DNA of 64,000 bases from Pelagimonas sp. (lineage in GTDB: Bacteria; Pseudomonadota; Alphaproteobacteria; Rhodobacterales; Rhodobacteraceae): the NCBI GenBank assembly GCA_025210265.1, contig JAOASD010000009.1, forward strand, positions 24,967-88,966, read 5' to 3'. The position numbers and the translations under genes were made by a program. Position 1 is the stretch's first letter. Every line of letters begins with the position of its first letter. Of this stretch, positions 34,266 to 52,207 are shown piece by piece. The notes below the pieces were generated by a model, which saw nothing but the letters and a program-made list of their open reading frames with translations, was not told the DNA's origin and did no database searches.

Positions 34266-34438
34266 TTTCGGAAATTCTGGCTTTGTCTTAGGGTCTCGCG
34301 CCGCGCGCGGGGCGGGGGTGTCTCCTGTTTGCTGGGGCCTTAGGGGCGATGTGGGAAAGGTGTATCTGCAACCGAAAGAATATTGACTTGCGCCGGGATA
34401 TGGTCATTCGTGCTGCTGCGAACAGGGTAGGGGGCAGC

Positions 34439-35155
34439 ATGGTAAAAGGTGAAGATCTCATGGATTTGAGAAGCGACATCATTCTTGCGGGTTCGGTGCA
34501 GGAATCGATCGAACTTCTGACCGATTTTTTCAAAGTCGATTATTTTACGCTGCATCTGTTTCGCGGGGGCACCGATGTGGGCATTATCCCCTATGTGCGC
34601 ACCAATTACCCGGCGGGGTGGGTGTCGCATTATCTGCTGAATGATTACGTGCGGATTGACCCGGTTCTGAAACATGCCGAATCCCATTTCGACCCGTTTT
34701 GCTGGTCGGACATCACGCTGGATGGGCCGCAATTGCAGATGATGCAAAATGCCATTGCAGCGGGGGTGGGGCAGACCGGGTTCAGCATTTCTCATGTTGA
34801 TCCGTTCAGCCGCCGCAGCGTTTTGTCGTTTAACGCGCAGGAGGCCCCGGATGGCGACAGCTGGAAACCCTTTCTGGCAGAGAATGGCGATAAGCTGGGC
34901 GGCCTTGCCGCGGATTTGCATCTGAAGGCGCTGGCGGAAATCAATATCGAAGACGCCGATCTGCCACAGCTGTCGCCCCGCGAAAGCGAGTGTTTGAAAT
35001 GGACTGCCGAGGGCAAGGCGCATACGGAAATAGCCATCATCCTGGGTCTGTCTGAACATACCGTGCGCAGCTATCTCAAGGTCGCGCGGATCAAACTGGA
35101 CAGCGTGTCTTTGGCCCAGGCCGTGGCCAAGGCGTCTTCGATGGGGCTGATCTGA
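34439..35155 (+). CDS. luxR: LuxR-type quorum-sensing regulator
   Basis: A 238-residue transcription factor expected to bind the signal made by the neighbouring LuxI. The autoinducer domain has W61, Y65, D74 and W89 with exactly the spacing of W57, Y61, D70 and W85 in TraR. The C-terminal HTH begins at LSPRESECLKWTAEGKAHTE (about residue 177) and continues SEHTVRSYLKVARIKL. The ATG at 34439 has AGGGTAGGGGG upstream; ATG at 34460 is an alternative. The gene is convergent with the end of the large biosynthetic operon, 13 bases apart. It likely controls luxI and that operon. Confidence 0.9.
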   Translation: MVKGEDLMDLRSDIILAGSVQESIELLTDFFKVDYFTLHLFRGGTDVGIIPYVRTNYPAGWVSHYLLNDYVRIDPVLKHAESHFDPFCWSDITLDGPQLQMMQNAIAAGVGQTGFSISHVDPFSRRSVLSFNAQEAPDGDSWKPFLAENGDKLGGLAADLHLKALAEINIEDADLPQLSPRESECLKWTAEGKAHTEIAIILGLSEHTVRSYLKVARIKLDSVSLAQAVAKASSMGLI

Positions 35156-35168
35156 AACCCGTGTGATG

Positions 35169-36044
35169 TCAGGCATCTGTCAGGGCTCTGTCTAGGCTGC
35201 GGGCGATGGATGTCACAGCCCGAGCCGCGGCATCGCTGCTGCCGGAATACAGACAGAAATCATGCGGCAGATCCTCATGGTCTTCCAGCTGCATCAGCCG
35301 CCCGGCGCGGTGCAGCGCGGCCCCGAACCTGCGGGCTTGAGGGGCCAGAATATCCGCCCCCGCCACATGCAGCCCGACCGGGGGCAGGGCGCGCAGCTGC
35401 GTGCTCCACATCTGGCAGGGCACGGGCTGACCGGCGCAGAGCGGACGGATGAAGCCGTAGAACCATTCCATCATGTCGCTGTCCAGAAAATGGCCCTGCC
35501 CATGGGGATCATTGGCAGCCACCTGCAGATCCGTCACCGGATAGATCAGCTGCAGCGCGGTGATCTGCGGGCTTTGCATCCGCGCGGCCAGTTGCACCGC
35601 CAGCAGGCCACCCACACTGTCCCCCATCAGGGTAAAGTCCCAGTCGGGATACCTGGCAAGCTGATCGCGCAGGCGGTGTTCCAGCTGGTGCAGGATCGCG
35701 GGGCCAGGGGTGCCCGGCGCTTTGTCATAGTCCAGCGCCAGCACGGTCAGCCCGGTTTGATCGGCCAGCTGGCCCAGAAAGGGCGCAAAGACCTGAGGCG
35801 TATAGAACACCAGCCCGCCGCCATGCAGATAGATCACGCCACGGCGCGGGGCGGGGTTGGATGGCACGAGGCGCAGCCCGGCCTGATCCGGCAGGTCCGA
35901 TACCGTGACAGTGTCGGGCAAAGCCGGCGCGTGGCGCGCCACCCAGGTCGCGGCGGCGCTGCGGCCAAAGTCGGCGGATTGGCGTGGATCGCCCTGCATC
36001 ATAAAGCGGCGCAGGGTGGCAAGCCGTTTGAAATCCGGGTGCAT
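35169..36044 (-). CDS. Alpha/beta hydrolase, hormone-sensitive lipase family
   Basis: A 291-residue esterase-like protein, last gene of the biosynthetic operon. IYLHGGGLVFY is the oxyanion-hole HGGG motif and LMGDSVGGLLAVQLA holds the nucleophile serine in GDSxGG, both signatures of the HSL family. The aspartate and histidine of the triad are likely in VAGADILAPQARRFG and LEDHEDLPHDF near the C terminus. The ATG at 36044 has GAAAGGA upstream; a longer open frame extends into the preceding gene and is rejected. It may cleave an ester or amide protecting group, or release product. Substrate unknown. Confidence 0.8.
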   Translation of the reverse strand: MHPDFKRLATLRRFMMQGDPRQSADFGRSAAATWVARHAPALPDTVTVSDLPDQAGLRLVPSNPAPRRGVIYLHGGGLVFYTPQVFAPFLGQLADQTGLTVLALDYDKAPGTPGPAILHQLEHRLRDQLARYPDWDFTLMGDSVGGLLAVQLAARMQSPQITALQLIYPVTDLQVAANDPHGQGHFLDSDMMEWFYGFIRPLCAGQPVPCQMWSTQLRALPPVGLHVAGADILAPQARRFGAALHRAGRLMQLEDHEDLPHDFCLYSGSSDAAARAVTSIARSLDRALTDA

Positions 36045-36057
36045 GGGGTGTCCTTTC

Positions 36058-36930
36058 TCAGGCGGCGACATGGGTTTCGTGGGGCTGCACCCGTTGCAGG
36101 GCAAAGCTGTGCGGGCGGGCTTCGCCGCTTGTGTCAAAGGTGATCGGCCCCAGAACCGTATCATGGGGATGATGCGGCCCGGCAAAGCGCGCGGCGACTT
36201 GCAGGGCGGCGATGGTTTCCCAGAAATAGGCTCCGGTTTGGGGCTGAATGCGCTGGATCCTGTGTGCGACCGGGCCCATGGGTTTGGGACGCAGCGCGCC
36301 CAGAACCACTTTGGTCTGGGTGAAATCAACCCCGGCGCGCACCAGATCCCCGGCCAGGTCCGGGCAATCCGCATCATCGGTCAGGATCAGGCGGTGCGCT
36401 TTGGTCGCGCCAGCCAGCGCCAGCAACGGCCTGTACAGACCAGAGATCAGCACCGTGCCCGTCGCGGCGCGCGGGACAAACCGGTTGCTCGCGCGCACCT
36501 GTTCAACCACGCTGTTGCCATGGGCGGATCCATCCGACAGGGCCGCATGGATTGGCCCTTTTACCGCATCGCACAGCCACGCCACATAATCGCGATCCGT
36601 GTCGCAGACCCGGAATACGCCTTGATGGCGGGTCAGGTCGCTGCGGGTGGCGGCGGGCAGGATCAGTGGCAGCCCAGCCTGCGCATAAAGCGGCGCAGCG
36701 GCCATGGCGGCAGAAGAGGCAAAATGCCCGACCACAATATCCGGTTTTGCGGCGATGATCTGGGCCGCCGCCTTGGCCCCGCCTTCGGCACAGGCGCGGT
36801 CATTATACAGCGTGACAGTGACATCCGCCCCCAACGCGACCTGGCGGGCGGTCTCTACCGCGCGCAGAAATCCCGGTGTGTGGACGCTGATATTTAGGTC
36901 CAGACAGGCAACGCAGGCGATGGAAATCAT
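36058..36930 (-). CDS. Periplasmic-binding-fold protein without signal peptide
   Basis: A 290-residue protein with the two-lobed fold of branched-chain amino acid/amide receptors (AmiC, LivJ). Features include VTVTLYNDRACAEGGAKAAAQIIAAKPDIVVGHFASSAAMAAAPLY and AGLPLILPAATRSDLTRHQGVFRVCDTDRDY, the typical ligand-cleft strand order. The ATG at 36930 forms an ATGA overlap with the upstream oxidase gene. From that start (MISIACVACLDLNIS) there is no signal peptide and no transporter genes lie nearby, so it may act in the cytoplasm as a ligand sensor or a recruited catalyst, as AmiC does in amidase control. Its presence in a biosynthetic operon is odd. Confidence 0.65.
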   Translation of the reverse strand: MISIACVACLDLNISVHTPGFLRAVETARQVALGADVTVTLYNDRACAEGGAKAAAQIIAAKPDIVVGHFASSAAMAAAPLYAQAGLPLILPAATRSDLTRHQGVFRVCDTDRDYVAWLCDAVKGPIHAALSDGSAHGNSVVEQVRASNRFVPRAATGTVLISGLYRPLLALAGATKAHRLILTDDADCPDLAGDLVRAGVDFTQTKVVLGALRPKPMGPVAHRIQRIQPQTGAYFWETIAALQVAARFAGPHHPHDTVLGPITFDTSGEARPHSFALQRVQPHETHVAA

Positions 36931-37982
36931 AGCGCGCCCCGCTCCATCCAGCCTGACACCATCTGCTGCGCCAGCGCCGGGATATATTTGGCACCCCGCC
37001 CGGAAAATCCGCAAAACGCCCCTGCTGCGCTGTCTGACGGGGTGCGCAGGATAGGCAGGAAGTCCTCGGTATAGCCGTCATGCCCGACATGGACCGAGAT
37101 CGGATCATAGGCGTCGCTGCCCAGCAGGGTTTTGCGAAACCCGGTATTCTGGCGCATGGCCTGATCGGGATCGACGGCCAGGTCTTCGGGGGTGGCGCTT
37201 TCGGCGGGTTTTGCGCCGCCCACATAGAAATGCCCGGTCTGGCCGGGGCGCAGATAACAGCCCTGCGCTTCGTCGATCAGGCACAGATTGGGGTGATCAG
37301 CCGATTTCGACGAAAAGCTGCTGAGCACGATGGACCGGGTGCGCACGGCCTCGGGCTGGTCCAGAAGATGCGGTGCAGCGCCTGTGGCAACGATCACGCG
37401 GCGCGCGCGGATCCCGCCAAAACCGGTTTCGACGCGCAGGTGATCGCTCTGCTGCCGAATGCGTCGGACGCGCACGCCCTCGATTGCGCTGGCCCCCAGA
37501 GACTGCGCCCGGTCGGTCAGCGCCCTTGCAGCAATGCGGGGGTTGATATGTCCGGCCTGCGGCTCCCAGATCGCCATACGCCCATCACGGGTATAATCCG
37601 GGTGCAGCGCGGGGCAGCGGTCGGCAATCTCGGCAGCGGGGACCAGGCGCATCCCGTGATCGGCATTGTCCTGCCGTTCCACAAACCTGCGCGCCTGTTC
37701 GATATTTTCGGGCGCAAGGAAATAGGCCAGCCCGATCGGGGTATATAATTCCGGGTGATCTGCGCCGAAATCGCGCCAGAACCGCAGCCCCGCGCTGGCG
37801 TAGTCTGCCAGTTCCGGCTGGGGATCATACACCCGCACCATGCCGCGCGAATGGGCCGTGGCACCGCCGCCGCCGACCACGTTGTCTTCGACCATCAGGG
37901 CGGACAGGCCCTGCTGCTGGCAGGCAAACAGCAGCGACGCCCCTGACAGCCCGCCTCCGATGATGATGACGTCTTCCATCAC
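36927..37982 (-). CDS. FAD-dependent amine oxidase (DAO/glycine-oxidase family), hydrazine pathway candidate
   Basis: A 351-residue flavoprotein. IIIGGGLSGASLLFACQQQG is the FAD-binding GxGxxG, VVATGAAPHLL and the late GFSGRGAKYIPALAQ are typical of the DAO family. Related oxidases stand next to the hydrazine synthetase in the s56-p1 and triacsin clusters (Spb39, Tri27 types), where they are thought to cleave the N-N linked lysine adduct oxidatively and free a hydrazino acid. It overlaps the cupin gene by 4 bases, so both are made together. Amino acid oxidase or imine-forming roles on another amine remain possible. Confidence 0.72.
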   Translation of the reverse strand: MMEDVIIIGGGLSGASLLFACQQQGLSALMVEDNVVGGGGATAHSRGMVRVYDPQPELADYASAGLRFWRDFGADHPELYTPIGLAYFLAPENIEQARRFVERQDNADHGMRLVPAAEIADRCPALHPDYTRDGRMAIWEPQAGHINPRIAARALTDRAQSLGASAIEGVRVRRIRQQSDHLRVETGFGGIRARRVIVATGAAPHLLDQPEAVRTRSIVLSSFSSKSADHPNLCLIDEAQGCYLRPGQTGHFYVGGAKPAESATPEDLAVDPDQAMRQNTGFRKTLLGSDAYDPISVHVGHDGYTEDFLPILRTPSDSAAGAFCGFSGRGAKYIPALAQQMVSGWMERGAL

Positions 37983-38398
37983 CGAGCCACCAGTTCAGGA
38001 AGCACCAGGTCCGGGGCTGCGCTGCGCGCCTGCGCTTCGGCGGCTTGATATTTGGCCACGTCTTCGCTGCTCCACCAGATTGTGTAGAAATGGAACGGCG
38101 CGTCTGAGCTGTTGCGCACAAAATGATCCATGCCGCGTGGGATCATCACCACATCCCCCTGCGAAATCGCATGGGATACACCATCCAGAATGACCTCGGC
38201 CTGGCCCTGCACGGCGATGAACATTTCGTCTTCGTCGCTGGGGGAATTGACATGGGCCAGGGTGTCATCGCCGGGGCGCACGATGCAATAGCCCCCGCCA
38301 AAAGGCGGCGTCACGCCGGGCCAGGGAAAGGTGCGGATTCCGTCCAGCCCATATTCAGTGTGCAGTTTGTCGGTCGAAAATTTACGGATCAGGTCCAT
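37979..38398 (-). CDS. Single-domain cupin, candidate N-N bond forming subunit
   Basis: A 139-residue cupin. Motif 2 fits fully: G81-x5-P87-x-G89-x2-H92-x3-N96. In motif 1 H49 and E58 (with G65) are kept, but the second histidine is N51, so the metal site is His/Glu/His with one ligand changed. In characterised hydrazine synthetases (Spb40, Tri28 and relatives) a cupin domain fused to a MetRS-like domain rearranges an O-aminoacyl N-hydroxylamine ester to the N-N product. Here the cupin is a separate protein in the same operon as a MetRS-like protein. It overlaps the oxidase gene by 4 bases and follows the carrier-protein gene by 3. Confidence 0.72.
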   Translation of the reverse strand: MDLIRKFSTDKLHTEYGLDGIRTFPWPGVTPPFGGGYCIVRPGDDTLAHVNSPSDEDEMFIAVQGQAEVILDGVSHAISQGDVVMIPRGMDHFVRNSSDAPFHFYTIWWSSEDVAKYQAAEAQARSAAPDLVLPELVAR

Positions 38399-38401
38399 GG
38401 G

Positions 38402-38659
38402 TCAGGCTGCCTTTTGAAAGCTGGAAAGAAGAGAGACAAAATTGTCGATGCTGCGCGGCGGGGTGACGCCCTCCAGCGCGGTTTCAAGATCCGCGTCAAA
38501 GCGGTCCGCAAAGAGCATGATCAGATCGACCACCATCAGGCTGTCGATCCCCAGATCCGCCAGCACAGCCGCAGGGTCGCGCAGCGCATCCGGGGTAATG
38601 TCGGGGCGACGGGTCTGGATTTCGGCGCATAGGGAATGGTGCAGAATGTCATTGGGCAT
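38402..38659 (-). CDS. Acyl/peptidyl carrier protein
   Basis: An 85-residue free-standing carrier protein. The phosphopantetheine site is the serine of LGIDSLMVVDL (residue 40), the canonical DSL motif, flanked by the helix LADLG and the acidic helix after it. It is expected to hold an amino acid, possibly a hydrazino acid, as a thioester loaded by the adjacent adenylation enzyme; the EntD-like transferase at 32214 should activate it. It overlaps the adenylation gene by 11 bases. Confidence 0.9.
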   Translation of the reverse strand: MPNDILHHSLCAEIQTRRPDITPDALRDPAAVLADLGIDSLMVVDLIMLFADRFDADLETALEGVTPPRSIDNFVSLLSSFQKAA

Positions 38660-40235: not shown

Positions 40236-40720
40236 GCTGCTGCTCCGATCGGGGGCGTCGTCAGCGCCGGACGCTGGGAAACGGGCCAGGTGAACCGTTG
40301 TTTGGGCAGCTCTCTGGCGCCCAGATGGCGGTAGAATCCCAGGCCCATTTCATTGTCCGGCGGGGTCTGCCACTGGATCGCGGGAATGCCGCGCTCTGCG
40401 GCGAAACTTTCCAGCGTTTCCATCATCTTCTGCCCCAGGCCCAAGCCCCGCGCAGGCGGGCTGAGATACAGGCAATCCAGATAGACAAACGACGCGGCAT
40501 CCCATGTGGAATAGTCGATTGTGGCGCTCATATAGCCGGTCAGCGTGTCGTCGACCTCCAGCACCCAGACCAGCAGGCGAGTGGCGCTGCCAAAGGCCAG
40601 GCGTTTGAGCGCCTCGGCCCGCTCGAACCCTTTTTCAAACGGAAAGCCTTCATAGGCGGCGTGGTCTTCGATCAGCCGGGTCAGCTGGTCCATATCGGTC
40701 GGTTTTGCCGGGCGGATCAT
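40232..40720 (-). CDS. GNAT N-acyltransferase
   Basis: A 162-residue acetyl-CoA-binding protein of the GNAT family. CLYLSPPARGLGLGQKMMETL holds the R-x-x-G-x-G/A pyrophosphate loop (near residue 90), and GLGFYRHLGAREL is the usual C-terminal beta-alpha element. In the triacsin pathway a GNAT enzyme (Tri31) acylates the hydrazino acid as protection before carrier loading; the same logic would fit here. It overlaps its upstream and downstream genes by 1 and 4 bases. Confidence 0.82.
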   Translation of the reverse strand: MIRPAKPTDMDQLTRLIEDHAAYEGFPFEKGFERAEALKRLAFGSATRLLVWVLEVDDTLTGYMSATIDYSTWDAASFVYLDCLYLSPPARGLGLGQKMMETLESFAAERGIPAIQWQTPPDNEMGLGFYRHLGARELPKQRFTWPVSQRPALTTPPIGAAA

Positions 40721-41202
40721 CAGACATACCCCTCAAAGCCAAGGGCCAGATAATCGGCCAGAACCTCATCTGTGAGGGTGTCGGGCTTTTGCTCCAGCAC
40801 CGAACGCACCCACAGGTCGCGTTCATATTTAAAGATCTCCAGTTCCCAGACGCAGGTGATCACGTTCAGATGATCCAGCGAGTCCATGCGCGGCGTGTCG
40901 CTGTCGAACTGATCCACCAGAAACGCCTTCATGCGCAGCATATTGGCGTCGTACCAGCTGTTCGTCAGGGTATAGAGCCCATCGCCCGCCCAGTGCAGGA
41001 TGCCAAATCCGACCTTGTGATCGGTGTCCAGTTTGGGGTCGGGCAGACCGGGGGCCAGCAGGCTTTCGATCTTTTCCGGGCTGGGCATCGGCGGGGTGCC
41101 GTAATCCGGGGCCACCAGCGAATAGATCTTTAGCATGTGATCCCCGACCTTCTGAGTGCCAAGGAAGGAAACGCGGCGGGGGCTGTATTCAAACGCATTC
41201 AT
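40720..41202 (-). CDS. Protein of unknown function in the hydrazine-type operon
   Basis: A 160-residue soluble protein, not recognised. It is acidic, with short conserved-looking blocks: VSFLGTQKVGDHMLKIYSLV at residues 11-30, VGFGILHWAGDGLYTLTNSW near residue 65 and LNVITCVWELEIFKYERDLW near residue 112, alternating beta strands and helices. The start overlaps the MetRS-like gene by 14 bases and the stop shares a base with the GNAT start. That degree of coupling suggests a partner or chaperone of the MetRS-like protein, or a dedicated enzyme of the pathway. Confidence 0.6.
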   Translation of the reverse strand: MNAFEYSPRRVSFLGTQKVGDHMLKIYSLVAPDYGTPPMPSPEKIESLLAPGLPDPKLDTDHKVGFGILHWAGDGLYTLTNSWYDANMLRMKAFLVDQFDSDTPRMDSLDHLNVITCVWELEIFKYERDLWVRSVLEQKPDTLTDEVLADYLALGFEGYV

Positions 41203-42619
41203 GGGTTTTGCTTTCTGTCAAAAGAGCGCCCAGAACGGGCATGAGAGGGGCGGCCATTTCGGCCAGCAGCCGATAGCCAGAGGCATGGGTGTCAGAGGGG
41301 GCGGTCTGGATCTGGGCAAACAGATCCATCACCGCGCGGGCCATGGCCTGCATGGAAAACGCATCCAGCCGGGTGGCGGCGCGATAGGCGATGGCCGGGG
41401 CGCTGTTTTGCCAGTCGGCCCGGTTGTCCCGGTTGTCCTGCGCGGCGGATGTCAGCGCCTGCGACACTGCCTTGCGCAGCGGGGTATAGCTGCTGTCGAT
41501 CCAGTCCCGGAACGCCGCGAGCGAGAAATTCTCGGCCTGGGTTTCCGGTGCGTGCAGCGCGGTGAACAGGCGGATCGCATCCAGCGGATACAGGCCGGTC
41601 ACATCCTTGATCCAGACCGCGTTGCCCCGGCTGGTGGAAAAATCATCACCATCCAGTTTCAGGAACCGGTTGGTGACAAAGCGCCCTACATCCGGCCCGT
41701 CGGGGTCACAGATCTGCTGCACCCCATAGGCCACCGCGTGGCTGTAGGAACAGTCAAAGCCAAGGAAATGCACCAGCTGGGTGTCCGGGCTCCACCAATC
41801 GGCAAAGCGGCCATGTTGGGGGGCATCCTCCAGATGGGCTTTGATCGCCGCGCGATAGCCCGCCAGCCCCATGAACCAGGTATGCACCGGATCGCCGCCA
41901 AATCGCGCAACGGGCAGACCGGCATCGCCGGGGCGGGTGATCGGCCAGCTGTCGTCCTGTTTGGCCAGGGCCTCGGCCAGATAGGCGCGCAGATCGTCGC
42001 GCATCCCGCGTTTGGCATGACGCGCGGCCAGCGCGTCAAACCGTTTGCCCAGATGCCAGACCTCGGCCCGCTGCGTGGTCAGCTGCATCGGTGTGCCACA
42101 GTTGATGCAGGTCATGTCGGTCATCAGGTAGGGCGTGGGCTTGGCCGCACAGCCTTCGCATTGCGATGCATCCGAGCTTTCGCCACAGACATTGCAATTG
42201 CCCCGGCCCCAGGCCTCGTGGCCCCATTTGGAACAGCTGGGACAGCGATGGACCTGCACCGTTTCGGTGGCCAGATCGTCGCTGATGCAGTCGAGATAGT
42301 GATTGACGCTTTCGGCAAACCACGGATTGTCCTGCGTGGTCGGGAAGGCATCAAATTCCACCCCGGCCAGTTCGGCGGACAGGGTGATCGCGCGCTGCAT
42401 CTGGTGGCTGTATTCTGCCGGATCACGCCCCAGGGCCTCGGCCTTGCGGGGCAGATAGCTTTGGTAATCATCCGAATAGCAGACCATCAGAACGTCATGG
42501 CCCTGGGCGATCAGCTGGCGGCGCATGACATCGGCGGCCAGAAACGGCCCCGAAAGATGGCCCATATGCAGATCGCCATTGGGCGTTGGCGGGGTGACTG
42601 TCAGGATATAACGCGACAT
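41189..42619 (-). CDS. Methionyl-tRNA-synthetase-like protein, candidate hydrazine synthetase subunit
   Basis: A 476-residue class I synthetase-like protein. The HIGH motif is HMGH at residues 18-21 after TPPTPNGDL, as in MetRS. Four Cys-x-x-Cys knuckles (126/129, 142/145, 154/157, 171/174) fit the two-zinc connective peptide. The KMSKS loop is changed to DFSTSRGN (326-333), losing its first lysine. The anticodon region is short and ends at residue 476. In hydrazine synthetases of the Spb40/Tri28 type a MetRS-like domain activates an amino acid and esterifies it to an N-hydroxy diamine, and the fused cupin then forms the N-N bond. Here no cupin is fused; one is encoded 2.8 kb downstream. The gene lies 1 base after the reductase gene. 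A true MetRS is very unlikely in this context. Confidence 0.82.
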   Translation of the reverse strand: MSRYILTVTPPTPNGDLHMGHLSGPFLAADVMRRQLIAQGHDVLMVCYSDDYQSYLPRKAEALGRDPAEYSHQMQRAITLSAELAGVEFDAFPTTQDNPWFAESVNHYLDCISDDLATETVQVHRCPSCSKWGHEAWGRGNCNVCGESSDASQCEGCAAKPTPYLMTDMTCINCGTPMQLTTQRAEVWHLGKRFDALAARHAKRGMRDDLRAYLAEALAKQDDSWPITRPGDAGLPVARFGGDPVHTWFMGLAGYRAAIKAHLEDAPQHGRFADWWSPDTQLVHFLGFDCSYSHAVAYGVQQICDPDGPDVGRFVTNRFLKLDGDDFSTSRGNAVWIKDVTGLYPLDAIRLFTALHAPETQAENFSLAAFRDWIDSSYTPLRKAVSQALTSAAQDNRDNRADWQNSAPAIAYRAATRLDAFSMQAMARAVMDLFAQIQTAPSDTHASGYRLLAEMAAPLMPVLGALLTESKTHECV

Positions 42620-42620
42620 C

Positions 42621-44624
42621 TCAGGCTACCTTTTTGATCGCAGGGGTCAGGTCCGACGCGCCGGTCACAAAACCGCAGATCTCTGAGATGAAATCCGGGT
42701 CGGAATACAGCGCCAGATGGGTGGCATCGCCGGCAGAATGCAGCCGCGCGCCGCGGATCACGCCCGCGGCGTCATAGCTGCCTTGCGGATGGGCGGTGAT
42801 GTCGCCCGTGCCCGTGAACAGAGCCGTGGGGCTGGTGATGTCCGGCAGCCAGCGCATCGGATCCTCTTTGACAAAGGCGCGGATCAGCCGGGCATAGCGG
42901 AACACTTGATCGGGGCTGCTGGTCAGCATCTGCACCAGATGGCGTTCTTGCGGCAGGGTCACGCTCATGGCTTCTTCGGCCTTGTTGGCGATGTCGCGCG
43001 TCACCAGCCGAACCATGGCGGATCGGTCCTCTTTAAAGACCGAATTGAACAGAACCCGTGCAATGGATTGTGACACGGCGACCTTGGGCATGATGGATTT
43101 CAGATTTTTCTGGAACGGGGTCAGCATGGCTTTGCGATGCATGAAACTGCCATTGATCAGCGACAGGTTGCGAATGCGGCGCGGAGCCTGATGGGCGATA
43201 TAGCTGGCCACGACAGCGCCGGTGGACCAGCCCAGCAGATGCATGTCGCGCAGGCCCAGCACGGCGCAGATCAGTTCCCAGTCGTCGAAATGATCCTGCA
43301 TCGCCACACCAAAATCCTGCGCCAGATCAAAGCCCCTGTCCGGCAGGCCCCGGCAATCCCAGGTCACGGTGTTCAACCCGGCACTGCGCAACTGAGTGAT
43401 CAGCGGGTGCAGCACGGTGCAGGGCATTCCGTAGGCATTCACGATCACGGCGGTTTGCGCCGCCGGATCAAAATCGCGGTTCACATAGGCCACAACCGGC
43501 CCGCCGGATGCGCGCTGCAGCCGCATCATCCGCATGTCATCCATCAGCGGCCCCTGTCGTGCTTCGTTGCAGGCCGCCTCGATCAGGTTGAGAATGTCGA
43601 TCTCATAGATCTTGTCGGCTTCCTCCAGTGCGGCCCCGTCAAAGACCTTGCGGTTTTCGGCCAGGGTGTAGGGGGCGAAAAAGGCCAGAGCGCGGTTCAG
43701 GGCGCGGTCCTGTTCGGGGATCTGGGCCGGGTCGCTGACACAGGTGATTTTCAGCCCCAGCCGGTCGCGCAGCGCGGCCAGCACGGTCGCCACCGGCACG
43801 TTTGACCCGCCGATAAACCGCGCGCGGGTTTCGCCCGCAGGGCAGGGCGCGGCGTGATCGGCCAGCATCGCATCCACCACGCGATCAACGTAAACCAGGT
43901 TCAGATCGCCGGTTCCGCAGAACAGCGTGACGGTCTTGCCGGGGCGGCTGTGCGCTTGCTTCATCAGCAGATGCAACACGCCATACAGCCCACTGCTGGA
44001 CCCCGCGGGCAGTTTGCTGTCGCGGGCGCCGACAATGATGGTTGGGCGCAGGATCGACAGGCCCCAGCCATGAACCTGCCCGGCATCGGTCAGGATCTGT
44101 TCGGCGGCGCGTTTGCTTTTTTCATATGCATTGTTAAAGCCGCTTGGTACGGGCGCGGTGTCGGTCTCTGTGCAACGCGTTTCCCCCGCGCCGGTCACAT
44201 AAGCCGTCGACACATGCCGGACCGATCGTACCCCCAGCCGTGCGGCCAGATTGGCCACCACATGTGCGGCTCCGATATTGTCCTGATGGCCTGCAGGTGA
44301 CAGATCCGCCGCCACATGCCAGATTTCCTGGATCCCTGCGGTGGCCAGCTGCTCTAGCGTGGGCTGGTCCAGACCGGCCATATCCTGTGACAAGTCTCCG
44401 GGGACAATCGTGACGCGGTCGGCCAGGGCCTGCGGTGTGCTGTCAGAGCGGTTGATCGCGTGCATCGCTCGGGCCAGCGCCTGTTCCAACCGCACGGCCG
44501 GGGCGGTGTCGCCATCGCGCAGCAGGGCAAAGACCTGGCGGTCCCCCTGCGCGTCACTGCCCAGCAGGCGGGCCAGGAAAGCAGAGCCCACAAAACCGGT
44601 TGCTCCTGTGATCAAAATCGACAT
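42621..44624 (-). CDS. Thioester-reductase-like SDR fused to alpha/beta hydrolase
   Basis: A 667-residue fusion. Residues 1 to about 350 resemble thioester/fatty-acyl reductases: SILITGATGFVGSAFLARLL (NADPH site), IWHVAADL, VRHVSTAYVTG and the catalytic Y-x-x-x-K in NNAYEKSKRAAEQ. Residues 370-667 are an alpha/beta hydrolase with the nucleophile in LLGWSTGAVVASYIAHQ and a late GTGDITAHPQ/HLALYSDP region for the acid and histidine. A carrier-bound acyl group could be released as an aldehyde or alcohol by the first half and processed by the second. This domain order is not one I know from characterised pathways. It starts 13 bases after the next upstream gene. Confidence 0.75.
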   Translation of the reverse strand: MSILITGATGFVGSAFLARLLGSDAQGDRQVFALLRDGDTAPAVRLEQALARAMHAINRSDSTPQALADRVTIVPGDLSQDMAGLDQPTLEQLATAGIQEIWHVAADLSPAGHQDNIGAAHVVANLAARLGVRSVRHVSTAYVTGAGETRCTETDTAPVPSGFNNAYEKSKRAAEQILTDAGQVHGWGLSILRPTIIVGARDSKLPAGSSSGLYGVLHLLMKQAHSRPGKTVTLFCGTGDLNLVYVDRVVDAMLADHAAPCPAGETRARFIGGSNVPVATVLAALRDRLGLKITCVSDPAQIPEQDRALNRALAFFAPYTLAENRKVFDGAALEEADKIYEIDILNLIEAACNEARQGPLMDDMRMMRLQRASGGPVVAYVNRDFDPAAQTAVIVNAYGMPCTVLHPLITQLRSAGLNTVTWDCRGLPDRGFDLAQDFGVAMQDHFDDWELICAVLGLRDMHLLGWSTGAVVASYIAHQAPRRIRNLSLINGSFMHRKAMLTPFQKNLKSIMPKVAVSQSIARVLFNSVFKEDRSAMVRLVTRDIANKAEEAMSVTLPQERHLVQMLTSSPDQVFRYARLIRAFVKEDPMRWLPDITSPTALFTGTGDITAHPQGSYDAAGVIRGARLHSAGDATHLALYSDPDFISEICGFVTGASDLTPAIKKVA

Positions 44625-44637
44625 GTTAACTTCCTTT

Positions 44638-45612
44638 TCAGTGGGTTAGGTGATGTGCGCAGGGCGTAGAGACCGCCTGTGCAGGTGTCGTGGTCAGCCA
44701 ATCTGCAACCAGATCGGCAAAGCGTTCAGGGGCAAGCTCTTCGGGCAGGTTATGGCCGGTTCCCGGCAGCGAGATATGCGTGACAGCAGGCAGGGCCTGT
44801 TCGAAATCGCGTCCCAGCGCAGGCGGCAGCCAGATGTCTTCCTGCCCCCACAGCAGCAGCACGGGCTGGTGTAGACAGGGCAGGTCTTTGACACGGGCAA
44901 AGCTGACGGCCTGCATCCGCGCAAACAGCGCATCGCGCGCGCCTTCGCGCAGCAACAGATCGTGATACCGGATGACCTGCGCCTCGGTGATGGTGCTGTC
45001 GTCAAACACAGCGTCCCGCAGGTTCTGGCGCACCACGATTTGCGGCGTCACGTTTTTCAGCATCGGCCCCAGCACCGGCAAAGCGGCGATTTGCCAGGCC
45101 AGCGGGCTGGGGGTGGGCTGGCCGGTCGGGGCCAGCAGGATCAGGCGCGGGGCCAGATCGGGTGCATCCAGCGCAAAGGTCCAGGCAATCTGGCCACCGG
45201 TGGAGTGACCCAGCAGGGCGGCGGGCTGCAGGTCCAGCGCGGTCAGAAAGGCCCCTAGCAGTGCCGTATTGTCGGGAATGGTGAACCCCGTGTCCGGCCC
45301 CGCCTGAGACAAGCCGCTGCCCGGCAGATCCAGCGCGATCACGCGATACCCACGCTGCGCCAGCAGGTGGGCGGGGGCGGTGAAAACCCCCTGATCCGCA
45401 CCCGACCCATGCAGCATCACGACCACCGGGCCGCTGCCCTGATCGGTGTAATGCAGCCGCGCACCCTGAACGTCGATCCAGCGGGACGTGGCGGTTTCAT
45501 AGGTCGCGCGCACCTGATCATAGGGCAGGTCTGCCCGGTACCCGGCGGCTCCAAGCGCCAGCACAGACAGCAGCGCCGCGCCGGCCAGTTTCAGCGGATT
45601 AGCCGCGCGCAT
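44638..45612 (-). CDS. Membrane-anchored alpha/beta hydrolase
   Basis: A 324-residue hydrolase with an N-terminal hydrophobic anchor (LKLAGAALLSVLALGAAGY, residues 7-25). The fold is clear from VVVMLHGSGADQGVF (oxyanion loop), RVIALDLPGSGLSQ, the nucleophile motif ALLGHSTGGQIAW, LLLWGQEDIWLPP (acid) and SLPGTGHNLPEELAP (histidine). Such proteins hydrolyse esters, lactones or epoxides. The start overlaps the flavin monooxygenase gene by 14 bases. The N-terminal anchor suggests action at or outside the inner membrane, for instance unmasking a product on export. Confidence 0.78.
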   Translation of the reverse strand: MRAANPLKLAGAALLSVLALGAAGYRADLPYDQVRATYETATSRWIDVQGARLHYTDQGSGPVVVMLHGSGADQGVFTAPAHLLAQRGYRVIALDLPGSGLSQAGPDTGFTIPDNTALLGAFLTALDLQPAALLGHSTGGQIAWTFALDAPDLAPRLILLAPTGQPTPSPLAWQIAALPVLGPMLKNVTPQIVVRQNLRDAVFDDSTITEAQVIRYHDLLLREGARDALFARMQAVSFARVKDLPCLHQPVLLLWGQEDIWLPPALGRDFEQALPAVTHISLPGTGHNLPEELAPERFADLVADWLTTTPAQAVSTPCAHHLTH

Positions 45613-46867
45613 GGCTTAGCCCTCCATGCGCTTTGGCACTGGGTTTCAGATTGGCTCGGGCGATCCGCGCCAAAGTGCCCAGGCTCAGCAACTGGTGCCA
45701 TTTCAACACCCGTCCAAGGAACAGATGCAGACGATGAGCAACCACAGGATCGCGGGCCGCCGCGCGCGAAATCAGCGTTTCCAGCAGGTTCGGAGCCCGA
45801 CCGCGCGACGCATCGCGGATGAAATATTCATGCCCGCCCAACTGCGATTTGTGCTGTTTGGCATAGGATTCCAGCGCCTGCGCCAAGCCCCTGTCCGACC
45901 CGATGGCGGGGCCGACGCGTTCGGCCATCCAATCCGCCGCCTGCAGCGCAAAGCCACAGCCAACGCCGGACATGGGGTCACAGGACATGCAGGCATCGCC
46001 CACCAGCGCCAGCCCGCGATAGCTGGCCGGGCGCCAGTAATCGTTCAGCTTGCGCATTCCGCGCATGTCCGAAGCCACCTTTGCGCCGCTTTGATCCGGG
46101 GCATTGGGCAGATCCTTGAAAAACGCCTCAAGCGCGGCGCGCCGGTCCTTGCCCCAATCAGCAAAGCCCTCTTCGGGGACAAAGCTGCACAGCATGGTCA
46201 GATCGCCATCAAACGGATAGGCAAAGCCCATGGTGCGCCCGACCTGCCAGAATTGCGCGGTCTTGCCAGTCTTGAGCGGCATGTTTTCGTAATAAGAAAA
46301 ATACACGAACCGATTGTTTTCGCGCATCTTTGTCGGCACATCCGCCAGCCGCGCGCCGGGGCTGTTGCGGCCATCGGCCAGCACCACCAGGCGGGCTGTG
46401 CTGATCTGGGGCTGACCGTCGCTGTCCCGCCATTCGATGCCGCGATAGGTGCCGCGGTCGTCTGCGATCAGCCCGGTCAGCGTGGCCCCAAGGGCAAGGG
46501 TGATGTTGGGTTCGTCGCGCATCAGGTCGATCAACAGCGGGTCCAGCACCTTGCGCCGCACGGAATAGCCATGGGCAGTGGCCGGGTCGCCTTTGATCTG
46601 GTCCTTGATCCAGCCATGTTCGGTCCAGATTTCGGCGCTGTTCTGTATCGCGCCGGCGGCGTCCAGACGGTCTTTCAGGCCCAGTTTCTGCAGCACGGGC
46701 AGGGCGGATCGCTGGATAAAAGTGGTGCAGACCTTTTTGTAATCCGCATCGCTGCGTTTGCGGTCGATGGCCAGAACCCGCAGGCCCTGGCGCGCCAGCA
46801 GAACGGCGCTGGCTGCGCCGCCGACACTGGCCCCGACAACCACGACATCATAGGGTTGATCAGACAT
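45599..46867 (-). CDS. FAD-dependent monooxygenase (group A type)
   Basis: A 422-residue flavoprotein related to PHBH-type monooxygenases and geranylgeranyl reductases. The N-terminal FAD site is VVVVGASVGGAASAVLLARQG, and LALVGDACMSCDPMSGVGCGFALQAADW holds the second FAD motif (GDA...P..G.G). The tryptophan-halogenase motif GWxWxIP is absent, so a halogenase is unlikely. It could hydroxylate, epoxidise or oxidise the N-N product, for example to a hydrazone or azo form. It overlaps the N-hydroxylase gene by 8 bases. Confidence 0.75.
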   Translation of the reverse strand: MSDQPYDVVVVGASVGGAASAVLLARQGLRVLAIDRKRSDADYKKVCTTFIQRSALPVLQKLGLKDRLDAAGAIQNSAEIWTEHGWIKDQIKGDPATAHGYSVRRKVLDPLLIDLMRDEPNITLALGATLTGLIADDRGTYRGIEWRDSDGQPQISTARLVVLADGRNSPGARLADVPTKMRENNRFVYFSYYENMPLKTGKTAQFWQVGRTMGFAYPFDGDLTMLCSFVPEEGFADWGKDRRAALEAFFKDLPNAPDQSGAKVASDMRGMRKLNDYWRPASYRGLALVGDACMSCDPMSGVGCGFALQAADWMAERVGPAIGSDRGLAQALESYAKQHKSQLGGHEYFIRDASRGRAPNLLETLISRAAARDPVVAHRLHLFLGRVLKWHQLLSLGTLARIARANLKPSAKAHGGLSHARG

Positions 46868-48215
46868 TGGTCAGTTCCTTTTCTGCGGTCAAAGTTACAG
46901 GGATCACGGGCGCAGGCCCCGCCAGCCCATCGGTGATCACCTTGGAGCGCAGCCAGAGCAGGCTGAACGACCCGGCATCGCCGAACCCATGGGTGGCTTC
47001 GCACAGCCCGTTCAGGAACACTTTGGGCGCGTCCGAACTGTCCGCCTGATCGGCAAAGCGCAGGCTGTAATCGCGGGCCACATCCACGCCGCCATCACTG
47101 CGATAGGCGCAGATCGGGGCGAGGTCGCGCATCAGCGGGTGATAGGCTTCGCGGGCATCGCCGCTGCCGAAATTGCGGAAACCGGTGGCAATCACGATGG
47201 CATCGGTGACATGGGCGCTGGGGGCGTCGGAATAGGTGTCGCGGGCGGTGATGCGCATCCGGCCTTCGGCGGTGCGGGCGACGGTTTCGATCTGGGTATT
47301 TGCGTTCAGCGTCAGCCGGGCATTGCCGGTGACTTTCTGTTCATACAGCACCAGATCCAGCGCCTGGATCACATCGGGATCTGCCGCGCCATAGTTTGAC
47401 CGCCACAGCTCGGCCGTCATCTTTTGCTGCTTTTCGATCGGAGCGTCGTAGAAATAATCCACGAACTCAGGCAGATAGATCTGTTCGGTGAAAGGGCTTA
47501 GATCCTTTTGCTTGAACCCAAAGCTGCGGGCGATGTTGGTGATCTCCAGCTTGGGGTCGCGGCCCAGCAGGTCGAGGATGATCTCAGCCGCGCTTTGGCT
47601 GCTGCCGACTACGGTGACGTGGCGCACCCCTTCGGACATCCAGTCACGCGCATGGGTCAGGTAATCGGTCAGATGCACCACGCGATGCCCCAGATGCGGG
47701 GCCAGTTCCGGCGGAATGTTCGGGCTGCGACCGGTGCCGATGCTGACATTGCGGGTCAGGTAGGATTGACCGTCACAGGTGACGCGCAGCAGATCCGCGC
47801 CATCCACGGTTTCGCGACAGATCGAGGTCACGGGGCTGGCATAGGACACCACATGATCGAACTGCCTAGCGACCCATTTCACATAGGCCTGATATTCGCT
47901 GCGCGGCGGGTAATGCGCGTCCAGATTCAGGAAATCCAGTAGGCGGTTCTGGGCCTTCAGATAGCTGAGAAAGCCATAGGGGCTTTGCGGATTGCGCGGG
48001 GTGACGAAATCGCGCAGCGGGTTGTGTTGGATGTCGGTGCCTTCCAGCGCCATATCCGGGTGCCAGGTTGCGGTGTCCTGCGCCTCAAGGAACAGCGCGC
48101 CTGGCAGTTTGCCCTCTTCTTCCAGCGCGATGGCCAGGGCGATGTTGGAGGGGCCAAAGCCCACACCGATCACGTCATAGATCCGGTCGCCGATCGGGGA
48201 AAATGTGCCGTCCAT
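46860..48215 (-). CDS. L-lysine/L-ornithine-type N-hydroxylase (SidA/IucD family)
   Basis: A 451-residue N-hydroxylating monooxygenase that should convert the side-chain amine of a diamino acid to a hydroxylamine with NADPH and O2. FAD site VIGVGFGPSNIALAIAL (residues 15-31), NADPH site VTVVGSSQSAAEIILDLL (near residue 210) and the late ATGFRNF are typical, as are HNPLRDFVTPRNPQSPYGFL and the substrate region. The ATG at 48215 overlaps the aminotransferase stop as TGATG and has GAGG 7 bases upstream. In hydrazine pathways its product, usually N6-hydroxylysine, feeds the cupin/MetRS system. Hydroxamate siderophore synthesis is the other common role. Confidence 0.88.
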   Translation of the reverse strand: MDGTFSPIGDRIYDVIGVGFGPSNIALAIALEEEGKLPGALFLEAQDTATWHPDMALEGTDIQHNPLRDFVTPRNPQSPYGFLSYLKAQNRLLDFLNLDAHYPPRSEYQAYVKWVARQFDHVVSYASPVTSICRETVDGADLLRVTCDGQSYLTRNVSIGTGRSPNIPPELAPHLGHRVVHLTDYLTHARDWMSEGVRHVTVVGSSQSAAEIILDLLGRDPKLEITNIARSFGFKQKDLSPFTEQIYLPEFVDYFYDAPIEKQQKMTAELWRSNYGAADPDVIQALDLVLYEQKVTGNARLTLNANTQIETVARTAEGRMRITARDTYSDAPSAHVTDAIVIATGFRNFGSGDAREAYHPLMRDLAPICAYRSDGGVDVARDYSLRFADQADSSDAPKVFLNGLCEATHGFGDAGSFSLLWLRSKVITDGLAGPAPVIPVTLTAEKELTNV

Positions 48216-49468
48216 CACGCCACCTCGTTCAGTTGGGGGCGCAGAACCGACTGCACTGCGGTTTCGATGATGTCGCAGGCCAGGGTCAGCTGCGCGCGGG
48301 TTGCGGTCAGCGGGGGCAGCAGTTTCAGCACCTCATCGCGGGGACCGCAGCATTCCACGATCAACCCCTGCGCGTAGCATTGCGCGCGGGTGGCCAACGC
48401 GTCCTTGGGATCGTCAAAGCGCAGCCCCTGCATCATGCCGCGCCCTTTGCGCTGCAGCCCGTTGCGCAGGGCGATACGGTCCAGCTGGGCGGTCAGCTGG
48501 ATGATCTTGCCGGACAGATCCTCGGCAAAATGGCTGTCGCTCCAGAAATGTTCTAGCGCGGCGGTGGCGGTGACAAACCCATGGCAGTTGCCGCGGAATG
48601 TGCCGTTATGTTCGCCCGGCGACAGGGTGTCGACCGACGGGGTCAGCAGCAGCATGGACATGGGCAGGCCAAACCCGGAAAGCGCCTTGGCCAGCAGGAT
48701 GATGTCGGGCTGTACGCTCATGGTTTCAAAAGAAAAGAACGTGCCAGAGCGGCCACATCCGGCCTGAATGTCGTCGACAATCAGCAGGGCACCATGGGCG
48801 CGGGCAATCGACTGGATCTTGCGCAGCCAGGGGCCTGAGGCCGTGTTCAGGCCGCCTTCGCCCTGGATGGCTTCCAGGATGATCGCGGCGGGGGCATCCA
48901 CCCCGCTGGAGGGGTCGGACAGCAATTTGTCCAGGTAGTCTGCGGTATCGACGCCCTCGCCCAGATAGCCGTCATAGGGCAGGCGCGTGACGCCATCGCC
49001 GATCGGGTTGGTGTTGCCCCGGTGGCTGCTGGATCCGGTCAGCGCCAGCGCCCCCAGCGAACAGCCGTGAAAGGCGTTGGTAAAGCTGATCACATTGCGC
49101 CGGCCTGTGGTTTTGCGGGCGATTTTGATCGCGGCTTCGACGGCGTTGGTGCCGGTGGGGCCGGTGAACATGAATTTGTAATCCATGTCGCGCGGCAGCA
49201 GGATATGTTTGCGGAAGGTGGTGCAGAACCGTTCCTTGGCATCGGTGTGCAGATCCAGGCTCATGGCGATGCCGTCGCCGCGGATGTAATCGACCAGGCG
49301 ATCCTGCAGGCGCGGTTCATTATGGCCATAGTTCAACGACCCGCAGCCGCTGAGAAAATCAAGATATTCACGCCCTTCGCCATCAATCAGGGTGCTGCCC
49401 CTGGCATGGGTGAAATTGGCGGGGAAGGCCCGGCAATACGTGGCGACTGAACTTTCGAAATGGTACAT
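48215..49468 (-). CDS. Diaminobutyrate-2-oxoglutarate aminotransferase (EctB-like)
   Basis: A 417-residue class III PLP aminotransferase. The fold marks are FTGPTGTNAVEAAIKIARKTTGRRNV, the AFHG motif in FTNAFHGCSLGALALTG, the PLP-binding aspartate in LIVDDIQAGCGRSGTFFSFE and the Schiff-base lysine in ILLAKALSGFGLPMS. The pattern is that of EctB/DABA aminotransferases, which make L-2,4-diaminobutyrate from aspartate semialdehyde. The ATG at 49468 has AAAGGGG upstream; a longer frame to 49519 is less likely. It is the first gene of the operon. DABA as a substrate of the N-hydroxylase would differ from the lysine used in known systems. Confidence 0.85.
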   Translation of the reverse strand: MYHFESSVATYCRAFPANFTHARGSTLIDGEGREYLDFLSGCGSLNYGHNEPRLQDRLVDYIRGDGIAMSLDLHTDAKERFCTTFRKHILLPRDMDYKFMFTGPTGTNAVEAAIKIARKTTGRRNVISFTNAFHGCSLGALALTGSSSHRGNTNPIGDGVTRLPYDGYLGEGVDTADYLDKLLSDPSSGVDAPAAIILEAIQGEGGLNTASGPWLRKIQSIARAHGALLIVDDIQAGCGRSGTFFSFETMSVQPDIILLAKALSGFGLPMSMLLLTPSVDTLSPGEHNGTFRGNCHGFVTATAALEHFWSDSHFAEDLSGKIIQLTAQLDRIALRNGLQRKGRGMMQGLRFDDPKDALATRAQCYAQGLIVECCGPRDEVLKLLPPLTATRAQLTLACDIIETAVQSVLRPQLNEVA

Positions 49469-50217: not shown

Positions 50218-50231
50218 CCCTCAATTGAGGG
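50218..50231. promoter_or_regulatory. Perfect palindrome between rhodanese and cysE genes
   Basis: CCCTCAATTGAGGG is a 14-bp perfect palindrome in the 245-base divergent gap, 103 bases before the rhodanese start and 130 before cysE. It is a strong operator candidate for a dimeric regulator. The CAATTG centre with C/G-rich arms is reminiscent of the symmetrical element in the luxI-luxR gap. Confidence 0.5.
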
Positions 50232-52188: not shown

Positions 52189-52207
52189 TTTCTGATATGC
52201 CGTGGGC

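What the first reader, a model, noticed from the sequence alone, without database searches (positions are those of the whole stretch)
35169..49468. Predicted hydrazine (N-N bond) biosynthetic operon in a Roseobacter-type replicon
Seen: a minus-strand run of fourteen genes, nearly all overlapping or 1-14 bases apart, that encodes an N-hydroxylase (46860), cupin (37979), MetRS-like protein (41189), DAO-type flavin oxidase (36927), GNAT (40232), adenylation enzyme (38649) and carrier protein (38402). Known: in s56-p1 (Spb38-Spb40) and triacsin (Tri26-Tri31) pathways, an N-hydroxylase and a cupin-MetRS hydrazine synthetase make an N-N bond between a hydroxylated diamine and an amino acid, a flavin oxidase frees a hydrazino acid, and GNAT, ligase and carrier protein carry it on. 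Inference: this operon makes a hydrazine, hydrazone or related N-N product. Its extra genes (DABA aminotransferase, reductase-hydrolase fusion, monooxygenase, three hydrolase domains) are not in those clusters as I know them, so the product may be new.
Basis: partly seen in the sequence, partly recalled or inferred. Interest (0 to 1): 0.95.

Follow-up and report, generated by a model that had tools for sequence, protein, structure and literature searches.

The report
Quorum-linked plasmid operon for hydrazine synthesis
A plasmid-type replicon carries a tight 14-gene operon, beside quorum-sensing genes, that is predicted to join two nitrogen atoms, likely starting from diaminobutyrate, and so would make a hydrazine-type natural product whose structure is unknown.

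Summary
Fourteen minus-strand genes lie at 35169-49468; 9 of 13 junctions overlap, 4 have gaps of 1-13 bases. The order is conserved in Pacificoceanicola and Gemmobacter, and a core recurs on Xenorhabdus and Vibrio plasmids. The MetRS-like protein is not the housekeeping enzyme: a separate one exists and a tree splits the two sets. With the cupin and N-hydroxylase it forms the known trio of cupin/MetRS hydrazine synthetases, so N-N bond formation is the best prediction.

Three corrections. (1) GNAT and ligase are not the triacsin/azaserine ones; the ligase is an NRPS-type adenylation enzyme. (2) The cupin is derived: in 39 of 39 sequences the second metal-binding His is Asn, next to a 3-residue insertion. 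(3) The cluster is larger: a strongly conserved rhodanese, a second serine acetyltransferase, LuxR, LuxI and a phosphopantetheinyl transferase, on a RepABC replicon.

The EctB-type aminotransferase points to N4-hydroxy-diaminobutyrate as likely substrate, as in actinopyridazinone. The product is unknown. Such operons in general, some with diaminobutyrate transaminase, were described in 2010. Verdict: a new variant of a known kind.

The parts
50361..51173 (+). serine O-acetyltransferase (CysE-like), divergent; second copy in this genome
   Evidence: TIGR01172 230.7 bits over cut-off 210.65; another copy at C27, 47% identical; homologues beside the cluster in L003 (67%) and L005 (52%)
50218..50231 (.). 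14-base perfect palindrome CCCTCAATTGAGGG between SAT and rhodanese; candidate operator
   Evidence: no other site with up to 2 mismatches in the window; 13 of 14 bases kept in L003 inside a longer conserved block
49687..50085 (-). rhodanese-like protein, first gene of the strand run, 218 bases before EctB
   Evidence: PF00581 above cut-off (on ORF 49687-50115); 83/67/64% identical in L003/L005/L006; start codon and upstream AAGGACAGACC kept in L003
48215..49468 (-). diaminobutyrate-2-oxoglutarate aminotransferase (EctB type)
   Evidence: TIGR02407 561.5 bits over cut-off 552.2; the one of 10 matches in the genome over the cut-off
46860..48218 (-). flavin N-hydroxylase, predicted to act on L-DABA
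   Evidence: PF13434 4e-94; closest solved chains 5cqf and 3s5w; active-site columns
45599..46867 (-). FAD-dependent monooxygenase/oxidase (FAD_binding_3, geranylgeranyl-reductase-like)
   Evidence: homologues in L003, L005, L006
44638..45612 (-). alpha/beta hydrolase with GHSTG
   Evidence: among the compared loci found in L003 and L004 (cut) only
42621..44624 (-). NAD_binding_4 (thioester-reductase-like) fused to alpha/beta hydrolase
   Evidence: PF07993 1e-32 and PF00561; among the compared loci found in L003 and L004 only
41189..42619 (-). MetRS-like subunit of the predicted hydrazine synthetase
   Evidence: trees; motifs
40720..41202 (-). 160-aa conserved protein, no Pfam or NCBIfam match
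   Evidence: 78/73/39/32% identical in L003/L004/L005/L006
40232..40720 (-). GNAT acyltransferase
   Evidence: PF00583
38649..40235 (-). stand-alone NRPS-type adenylation enzyme
   Evidence: TIGR01733 347.2 bits over cut-off 317.4; pocket stretch FDVSIED identical in 5 of 5 loci
38402..38659 (-). carrier protein
   Evidence: PF00550 over cut-off; GIDS (GVDS in L006) kept in 5 of 5 loci
37979..38398 (-). cupin subunit with derived metal motif HxNxPxDExE
   Evidence: model pLDDT 93, nearest solved fold plu4264 4mv2
36927..37982 (-). DAO-type flavin oxidase predicted to cleave the N-N intermediate
   Evidence: PF01266 7e-44; 47 close relatives under 1e-40, itself included
36058..36930 (-). periplasmic-binding-protein-like protein; no evident signal peptide by eye
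   Evidence: PF13458 30.6 bits, just under cut-off 31.7; homologues in L003-L007
35169..36044 (-). Abhydrolase_3 (HSL-type) hydrolase; start revised
34349..35155 (+). LuxR-type regulator
   Evidence: PF03472 and PF00196 over cut-off; 75% in L003, 59% in L004
33488..34165 (-). LuxI-type acyl-homoserine-lactone synthase
   Evidence: PF00765 2e-30; 75% in L003, 64% in L004
32936..33460 (-). 174-aa conserved protein of unknown function
   Evidence: no Pfam; 48% in L003, 36% over 148 residues in L004
32148..32939 (+). 4'-phosphopantetheinyl transferase, would activate the carrier protein
   Evidence: PF17837 and PF01648; 48% in L003, there in the other orientation relative to the operon

Best explanation
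This is a conserved operon, next to LuxI and LuxR genes on a RepABC replicon, that is predicted to build a hydrazine from N4-hydroxy-diaminobutyrate and a second amino acid. Steps, all inferred from families and context: EctB makes L-2,4-diaminobutyrate (DABA) from aspartate semialdehyde; the flavin N-hydroxylase makes N4-hydroxy-DABA; the MetRS-like protein adenylates an amino acid and esterifies it to the hydroxylamine; the cupin rearranges the ester to an N-N bond; the DAO-type oxidase cleaves the conjugate, most likely leaving 2-amino-4-hydrazinylbutanoate; the adenylation enzyme loads that amino acid on the carrier protein; GNAT, the second flavoenzyme, reductase and hydrolases tailor and release it, possibly as a ring such as a pyridazinone. 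LuxI/LuxR would switch the operon on at high density.
For: Trio NMO + MetRS-like + cupin. MetRS-like outside 25 housekeeping MetRS, SH-aLRT 100, and a separate MetRS in the genome, 438 bits against 137. Conserved synteny. EctB over its cut-off and directly beside the NMO in the 4 loci that reach so far (window, L003, L005, L006; split frame in L006). NMO has Arg and Glu/Asp where the Lys-type rows have Lys and Asn, while the Robbsia enzyme, next to two aminotransferase-family genes, has lost both. Adenylation enzyme has the FD Asp and an acidic residue four places on in 5 of 5, neither at the AzsP position. DABA precedent Apy9/10/11 and Por9/11. LuxR and LuxI in 3 of 3 loci of this type from Rhodobacterales or the window.
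Against: The cupin lacks the canonical second His in 39 of 39; the H65A variant of RHS1 lost zinc and activity, and the nearest solved relative, plu4264, keeps the canonical HxH. No Apy, Por, Spb or Tri sequence could be compared. The direction of DAO cleavage is unknown. 5cqf, named a lysine enzyme, shares the Arg but keeps the Asn. Rhodanese, SAT, the binding-protein-like gene and the 160-aa protein have no role in this scheme. NCBIfam NF008859 would name the MetRS-like protein methionine-tRNA ligase (555.2 over 553).
Confidence: 0.42

Rival explanations
1. Same N-N chemistry, opposite cleavage: the DAO cuts the C4-N bond, frees a 2-hydrazino acid (such as hydrazinoacetic acid) and aspartate semialdehyde, and EctB re-aminates that semialdehyde to DABA, so DABA is a recycled nitrogen carrier.
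For: Spb39-type cleavage frees hydrazinoacetic acid plus a lysine-derived semialdehyde. Azaserine and triacsin clusters carry saccharopine dehydrogenase genes, enzymes that by family knowledge can turn that semialdehyde back to lysine. EctB acts on aspartate semialdehyde (family knowledge) and is in all four loci whose sequence reaches that far.
Against: Disruption of tri23 and tri24, the saccharopine dehydrogenase genes, did not change triacsin production (as told), so recycling is not essential there. DAO and GNAT are not close to the hydrazinoacetate-type cluster L015, and no acyl-CoA dehydrogenase of the Tri22/AzsF kind is in the operon. The adenylation pocket has an acidic residue that suits a basic side chain (reading recalled).
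Confidence: 0.27
2. The MetRS-like protein forms only an ester or amide on a hydroxylated diamine and the derived cupin does something else; no N-N bond is made.
For: Second metal His replaced by Asn with a 3-residue insertion in 39 of 39.
Against: First His, Glu and distal His are kept, and the fold matches plu4264 closely. Cupin, MetRS-like and NMO genes occur together in the eight other loci compared.
Confidence: 0.14
3. The N-hydroxylase acts on ornithine, lysine or another diamine and the DABA goes elsewhere in the product.
For: Closest solved chains are named lysine and ornithine monooxygenases.
Against: Two active-site columns differ from the Lys-type rows; EctB lies directly beside the NMO in 4 of 4 loci.
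Confidence: 0.12
4. A hydroxamate siderophore operon (N-hydroxylase plus GNAT).
For: N-hydroxylase and GNAT together are a siderophore signature (family knowledge; Aravind 2010 raised a siderophore).
Against: GNAT best matches Acetyltransf_1 and no siderophore synthetase is in the operon; MetRS-like and cupin unexplained.
Confidence: 0.04

Closest known systems
Cupin/MetRS hydrazine synthetases (Spb40, Tri28, PyrN, AzaE/AzsN, RHS1 pair)
   Same: MetRS-like protein, cupin and flavin N-hydroxylase in one cluster; cupin fold
   Different: Own subclade on a long branch; cupin metal motif HxN(+3)...E instead of H/DxHxxxE; separate subunits, with four genes between the MetRS-like gene and the cupin gene
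Actinopyridazinone pathway (Apy9-Apy11) and por cluster of Pseudomonas orientalis
   Same: DABA-based N-N chemistry is predicted here too; N-hydroxylase and synthetase in both, DAO-type oxidase in Apy
   Different: Sequences not available for comparison; rhodanese, SAT, reductase-hydrolase and quorum genes not mentioned for them in what I read
Triacsin/azaserine HAA cassette (Tri26-31, AzsL-S)
   Same: Same list of activities: N-hydroxylase, oxidase, synthetase, ligase, carrier, GNAT
   Different: Compared with L015: GNAT and ligase not orthologous, ligase is NRPS type, no acyl-CoA dehydrogenase in the operon
MtRS-paralogue operons of Aravind, de Souza and Iyer 2010
   Same: General architecture, including periplasmic-binding proteins and, in some, diaminobutyrate transaminase, cysteine synthase, GNAT and carrier proteins; Dickeya, Photorhabdus and Ralstonia named
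   Different: They proposed a Met-Lys dipeptide; N-N chemistry was unknown then; no LuxI/LuxR link in the parts I read (1-4 of 6)

Membership tests
cupin/MetRS hydrazine synthetase | MetRS paralogue distinct from the housekeeping enzyme | tested here: met
   separate MetRS over cut-off; 32 HS-like against 25 housekeeping rows, one split, SH-aLRT 100; the program warns of long branches; no archaeal-type MetRS included
cupin/MetRS hydrazine synthetase | class I synthetase adenylation motifs kept | tested here: met
   HMGH and FSTSR present (sequence; FSTSR column)
cupin/MetRS hydrazine synthetase | cupin with RHS1 zinc ligands D/H-x-H-xxx-E and distal H | tested here: not met
   second His is Asn with a 3-residue insertion, 39 of 39; the other three positions are His, Glu, His; metal content not testable
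cupin/MetRS hydrazine synthetase | linked flavin N-hydroxylase | tested here: met
   28-32% to the NMOs beside MetRS-like genes in L007 and L012-L018
cupin/MetRS hydrazine synthetase | groups with an experimentally proven member | tested here: inconclusive
   R. jostii locus L018 and azaserine-type L015 lie outside the 24-row subclade; Ralstonia row inside it, link to Ral2 unproven
cupin/MetRS hydrazine synthetase | forms an N-N bond | not testable with these tools
   needs enzymes
triacsin/azaserine HAA-loading cassette | orthologous GNAT (AzsS position in L015) | tested here: not met
triacsin/azaserine HAA-loading cassette | orthologous AMP ligase (AzsP position in L015) | tested here: not met
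   better match to an NRPS adenylation domain
triacsin/azaserine HAA-loading cassette | acyl-CoA dehydrogenase (Tri22/AzsF) | tested here: not met
   none among the 14 genes
triacsin/azaserine HAA-loading cassette | orthologous DAO (AzsM position in L015) | tested here: inconclusive
   25% over 228 residues, E 1e-4 in a single comparison
DABA-type pathway (actinopyridazinone) | DABA supply gene | tested here: met
   (a feature by my reasoning, not named for the apy cluster in what I read)
DABA-type pathway (actinopyridazinone) | DABA-specific N-hydroxylase | tested here: inconclusive
   active-site columns only
DABA-type pathway (actinopyridazinone) | sequence kinship with Apy9-Apy11 | not tested
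   Apy sequences were not at hand
LuxI/LuxR quorum-sensing pair | AHL synthase plus AHL-binding regulator next to the operon | tested here: met
   kept in L003 and L004; regulation itself not testable

The most novel reading that the evidence does not exclude
The operon is a self-renewing nitrogen-shuttle cycle under quorum control: DABA carries one nitrogen into an N-N bond through a cupin with a new metal site, the oxidase returns aspartate semialdehyde, and EctB recharges it from glutamate. The conserved rhodanese and the second serine acetyltransferase would add sulfur, so the product would be a nitrogen-nitrogen-sulfur compound of a kind not yet known.
Probability: 0.1. Interest if true: 0.9.

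Novelty: new variant of a known kind. Interest (0 to 1): 0.62.

Why it matters
If right, it extends hydrazine synthetases to a quorum-linked group in Rhodobacterales and to plasmids of Xenorhabdus and Vibrio, with a cupin whose metal site departs from the one studied. That makes two open questions testable: which metal ligands N-N formation really needs, and whether the diamine is consumed or recycled. Rhodanese and SAT hint at sulfur in the product; a cysteine synthase gene is noted in some related operons (PMC2922099), but I saw no sulfur step described for a hydrazine synthetase pathway in the sections and passages read.

Tried and rejected
Tried without result: prediction of the 160-aa protein (3 sequences, pLDDT 46); solanimycin as a relative, because the adenylation enzyme hit SolG (the word cupin occurs in neither paper; passages seen); E. 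coli genomes for 3.9 kb of the Xenorhabdus core (no match); rhodanese neighbourhoods on one Serratia and one Pantoea plasmid (no biosynthetic link seen); defence families for four of the proteins (none); ectoine synthase in the genome (not found, but no control genome rang, so absence is not shown). Whole-genome sampling for the MetRS-like protein found no second holder: 0 of 393, 0 of 389 and 0 of 397 other genomes in family, order and phylum samples at E 1e-80 or 1e-70; the samples overlap, and for most listed genomes only 4 first-look candidates were scored. The first housekeeping row, was a wrong ORF; one search replaced it. In one search one of 26 housekeeping loci (L052) dropped out for lack of a BLAST hit, and 19 of 120 listed relatives were used with 13 loci. 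In one search, contig lengths of 61 of 120 synthetase hits, 47 of 53 oxidase hits and all 38 cupins were compared.

Rejected: ectoine synthesis, although EctB, a GNAT and a cupin look like EctABC: the cupin does not hit Ectoine_synth and the GNAT lists no ectoine model. The antisense ORF 34340-35176, which is LuxR read on the wrong strand. The 402-aa version of the last hydrolase.


Full report
Anatomy. Fourteen genes run on the minus strand from 49468 to 35169: EctB-type aminotransferase, flavin N-hydroxylase, FAD_binding_3 flavoenzyme, hydrolase, reductase-hydrolase fusion, MetRS-like protein, a 160-aa protein, GNAT, adenylation enzyme, carrier protein, cupin, DAO-type oxidase, periplasmic-binding-like protein and a second type of hydrolase. 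All are open frames. Nine of 13 junctions overlap and four have gaps of 1-13 bases. A rhodanese gene precedes them on the same strand after a 218-base gap, and a serine acetyltransferase (SAT) gene diverges from it. Downstream lie LuxR on the other strand, LuxI, a 174-aa protein and a phosphopantetheinyl transferase. The window also carries RepA, RepB and RepC, so the replicon is of RepABC plasmid or chromid type.

Conservation. In L003 (Pacificoceanicola onchidii) homologues of all genes in the parts list are present at 48-83% identity; only the phosphopantetheinyl transferase differs in orientation. In L004 (a Gemmobacter metagenome genome, whose contig ends inside the first hydrolase gene) the genes from there to LuxI are present. 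On the Xenorhabdus plasmid pXT29 (L005) and the Vibrio halioticoli plasmid (L006) the core is kept: MetRS-like, 160-aa, GNAT, adenylation, carrier, cupin, oxidase, binding-protein-like, hydrolase, rhodanese, N-hydroxylase, EctB and flavoenzyme. The carrier of L005 is fused to the cupin and was seen by Pfam, not by BLAST with the window carrier. The first hydrolase, the reductase-hydrolase and LuxI/LuxR were found only in window, L003 and L004. SAT is next to the cluster in window, L003 and L005, and not in the 25 kb of L006 that I had. The genome has a second SAT elsewhere. I take the rhodanese as a core member and the SAT as a likely one, although I read of no role for either in a known hydrazine pathway.

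Is the MetRS-like protein a synthetase of protein synthesis? No. The genome has a separate MetRS that scores 438 bits with TIGR00398 against 137 for this protein. In a tree of 32 MetRS-like proteins from such clusters and 25 proteobacterial housekeeping MetRS the two sets split cleanly, SH-aLRT 100 (the program warns of long branches, and no archaeal-type MetRS was included). The NCBI family NF008859 would still call it methionine-tRNA ligase, which I take as a mislabelled paralogue family. In the tree it belongs to a 24-row subclade with Dickeya, Pantoea, Cronobacter, Ralstonia and Pseudomonas proteins, apart from the azaserine-type L015 and from the R. jostii locus L018. The L018 cupin fits RHS1 by its residue numbering; overexpressed with its MetRS-like protein and N-hydroxylase it made an N-N product (PMC8664883, passages read).

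The cupin. RHS1 binds zinc with Asp63, His65, Glu69 and His103, and all four alanine variants were inactive. In the alignment the window cupin has His49, Asn51, Glu58 and His92 in these columns, with three extra residues after Asn51. The signature HxNxPxDExE is present in 38 of 38 relatives found with this cupin as query, and in the window protein. The other cupins beside MetRS-like genes have HxH (L007, L012-L016), ExH (L017) or DxH (L018), and plu4264 of Photorhabdus, the nearest solved relative, has HxH. The model (pLDDT 93) has the cupin fold, nearest to plu4264 and a Salinispora cupin. I had no coordinates, so I cannot say which residues would hold the metal. This is a defining feature tested and not met, so I do not file the pair as an ordinary member; it most likely works like one. 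Fourteen of the 38 relatives are 213-229 aa long; the three printed have an N-terminal carrier domain. That links carrier and cupin, as the azaserine synthetase does in another order. For 21 of 38 cupins the longest contig has the same length as that of a MetRS-like or oxidase hit, which suggests linkage.

Substrates. EctB passes its family cut-off and is the only protein of 10 matches over it in the genome. The N-hydroxylase has Arg and Glu/Asp at two columns where the Lys-type rows have Lys and Asn. A Robbsia N-hydroxylase, beside a DABA transaminase and a second aminotransferase-family gene (a decarboxylase by my reading), lacks both. The meaning of these columns (substrate binding in PvdA/SidA) is recalled. 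DABA as hydroxylated partner has a precedent: Apy11 hydroxylates L-DABA, Apy9 joins the product to alanine, and Por11 joins N4-hydroxy-DABA (or a second diamine) to glycine (review PMC11705231, section 15 read whole; primary papers not seen). The adenylation enzyme is NRPS-like and has the FD aspartate and an acidic residue four places on in 5 of 5 loci; the ligase at the AzsP position of L015 has neither. By recalled specificity rules this suits an alpha-amino acid with a basic end, such as 2-amino-4-hydrazinylbutanoate. A hydrazino acid is not excluded.

Difference from triacsin and azaserine. L015 has the gene content of the azaserine cluster tabulated in PMC10445470 (parts 1 and 2 of 6 read; L015). 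Against it, the window GNAT has no alignment longer than 14 residues, the ligase matches the NRPS adenylation domain (29.6%, 162 bits) better than the AzsP position (26%, 76 bits), and the oxidase matches weakly. The oxidase has 47 close relatives under 1e-40, itself included.

Prior art. Aravind and colleagues described in 2010 the MetRS paralogue with cupin and lysine N-hydroxylase, and noted GNAT, carrier proteins, periplasmic-binding proteins, diaminobutyrate transaminase and cysteine synthase in some operons (PMC2922099, parts 1-4 of 6 read). They proposed a peptide. No listed title or abstract start in my searches concerned a Rhodobacterales hydrazine cluster. They cover open-licence papers only, and searches listed 5 of 2,523, 10 of 132 and 12 of 44 papers.

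Judgement. N-N bond formation by this operon: about 0.8. DABA as hydroxylated partner: about 0.65. The 2-amino-4-hydrazinylbutanoate branch rather than hydrazino acid with DABA recycling: weakly favoured. Product structure and the roles of rhodanese, SAT, 160-aa and binding-like proteins: open.

Noticed in passing
L006 3656-11429: The Vibrio halioticoli copy of the cluster lies directly downstream of a Tn7-like set TnsA, Mu-type transposase, TniB-like ATPase, TniQ, TnsD, TnsE; it may be cargo. Its EctB frame is split (21646-21861 and 21833-22975).
   Followed up: partly
50218-50231; L003 2370-2383: Palindrome CCCTCAATTGAGGG between SAT and rhodanese, nearly kept in L003 with a longer conserved block; candidate operator.
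   Followed up: partly
P0193-P0206 (protein set): Fourteen of 38 cupin relatives are 213-229 aa long; the three printed have an N-terminal carrier domain fused to the cupin.
   Followed up: partly
41189-42619: NCBIfam NF008859 labels this paralogue group methionine-tRNA ligase (555.2 over cut-off 553), probably a misnaming.
   Followed up: no
746-20513: RepABC replication genes (14607-18191) with exopolysaccharide-type genes (Wzy_C, GH16, two Wzz proteins) on the same stretch.
   Followed up: no
L005 22052-22417; L006 19950-20300 and 24351-25295: SnoaL-like genes in both gammaproteobacterial copies and a BtrH-like gene in Vibrio, not among the window operon genes.
   Followed up: no
51245-52495: Isochorismatase-domain protein next to SAT with a long N-terminal part; no homologue found in L003-L007.
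   Followed up: no
L017 3577-9832: Robbsia andropogonis plasmid operon with DABA transaminase, a second aminotransferase-family gene, N-hydroxylase, MetRS-like and cupin: would suit a decarboxylated diamine.
   Followed up: partly
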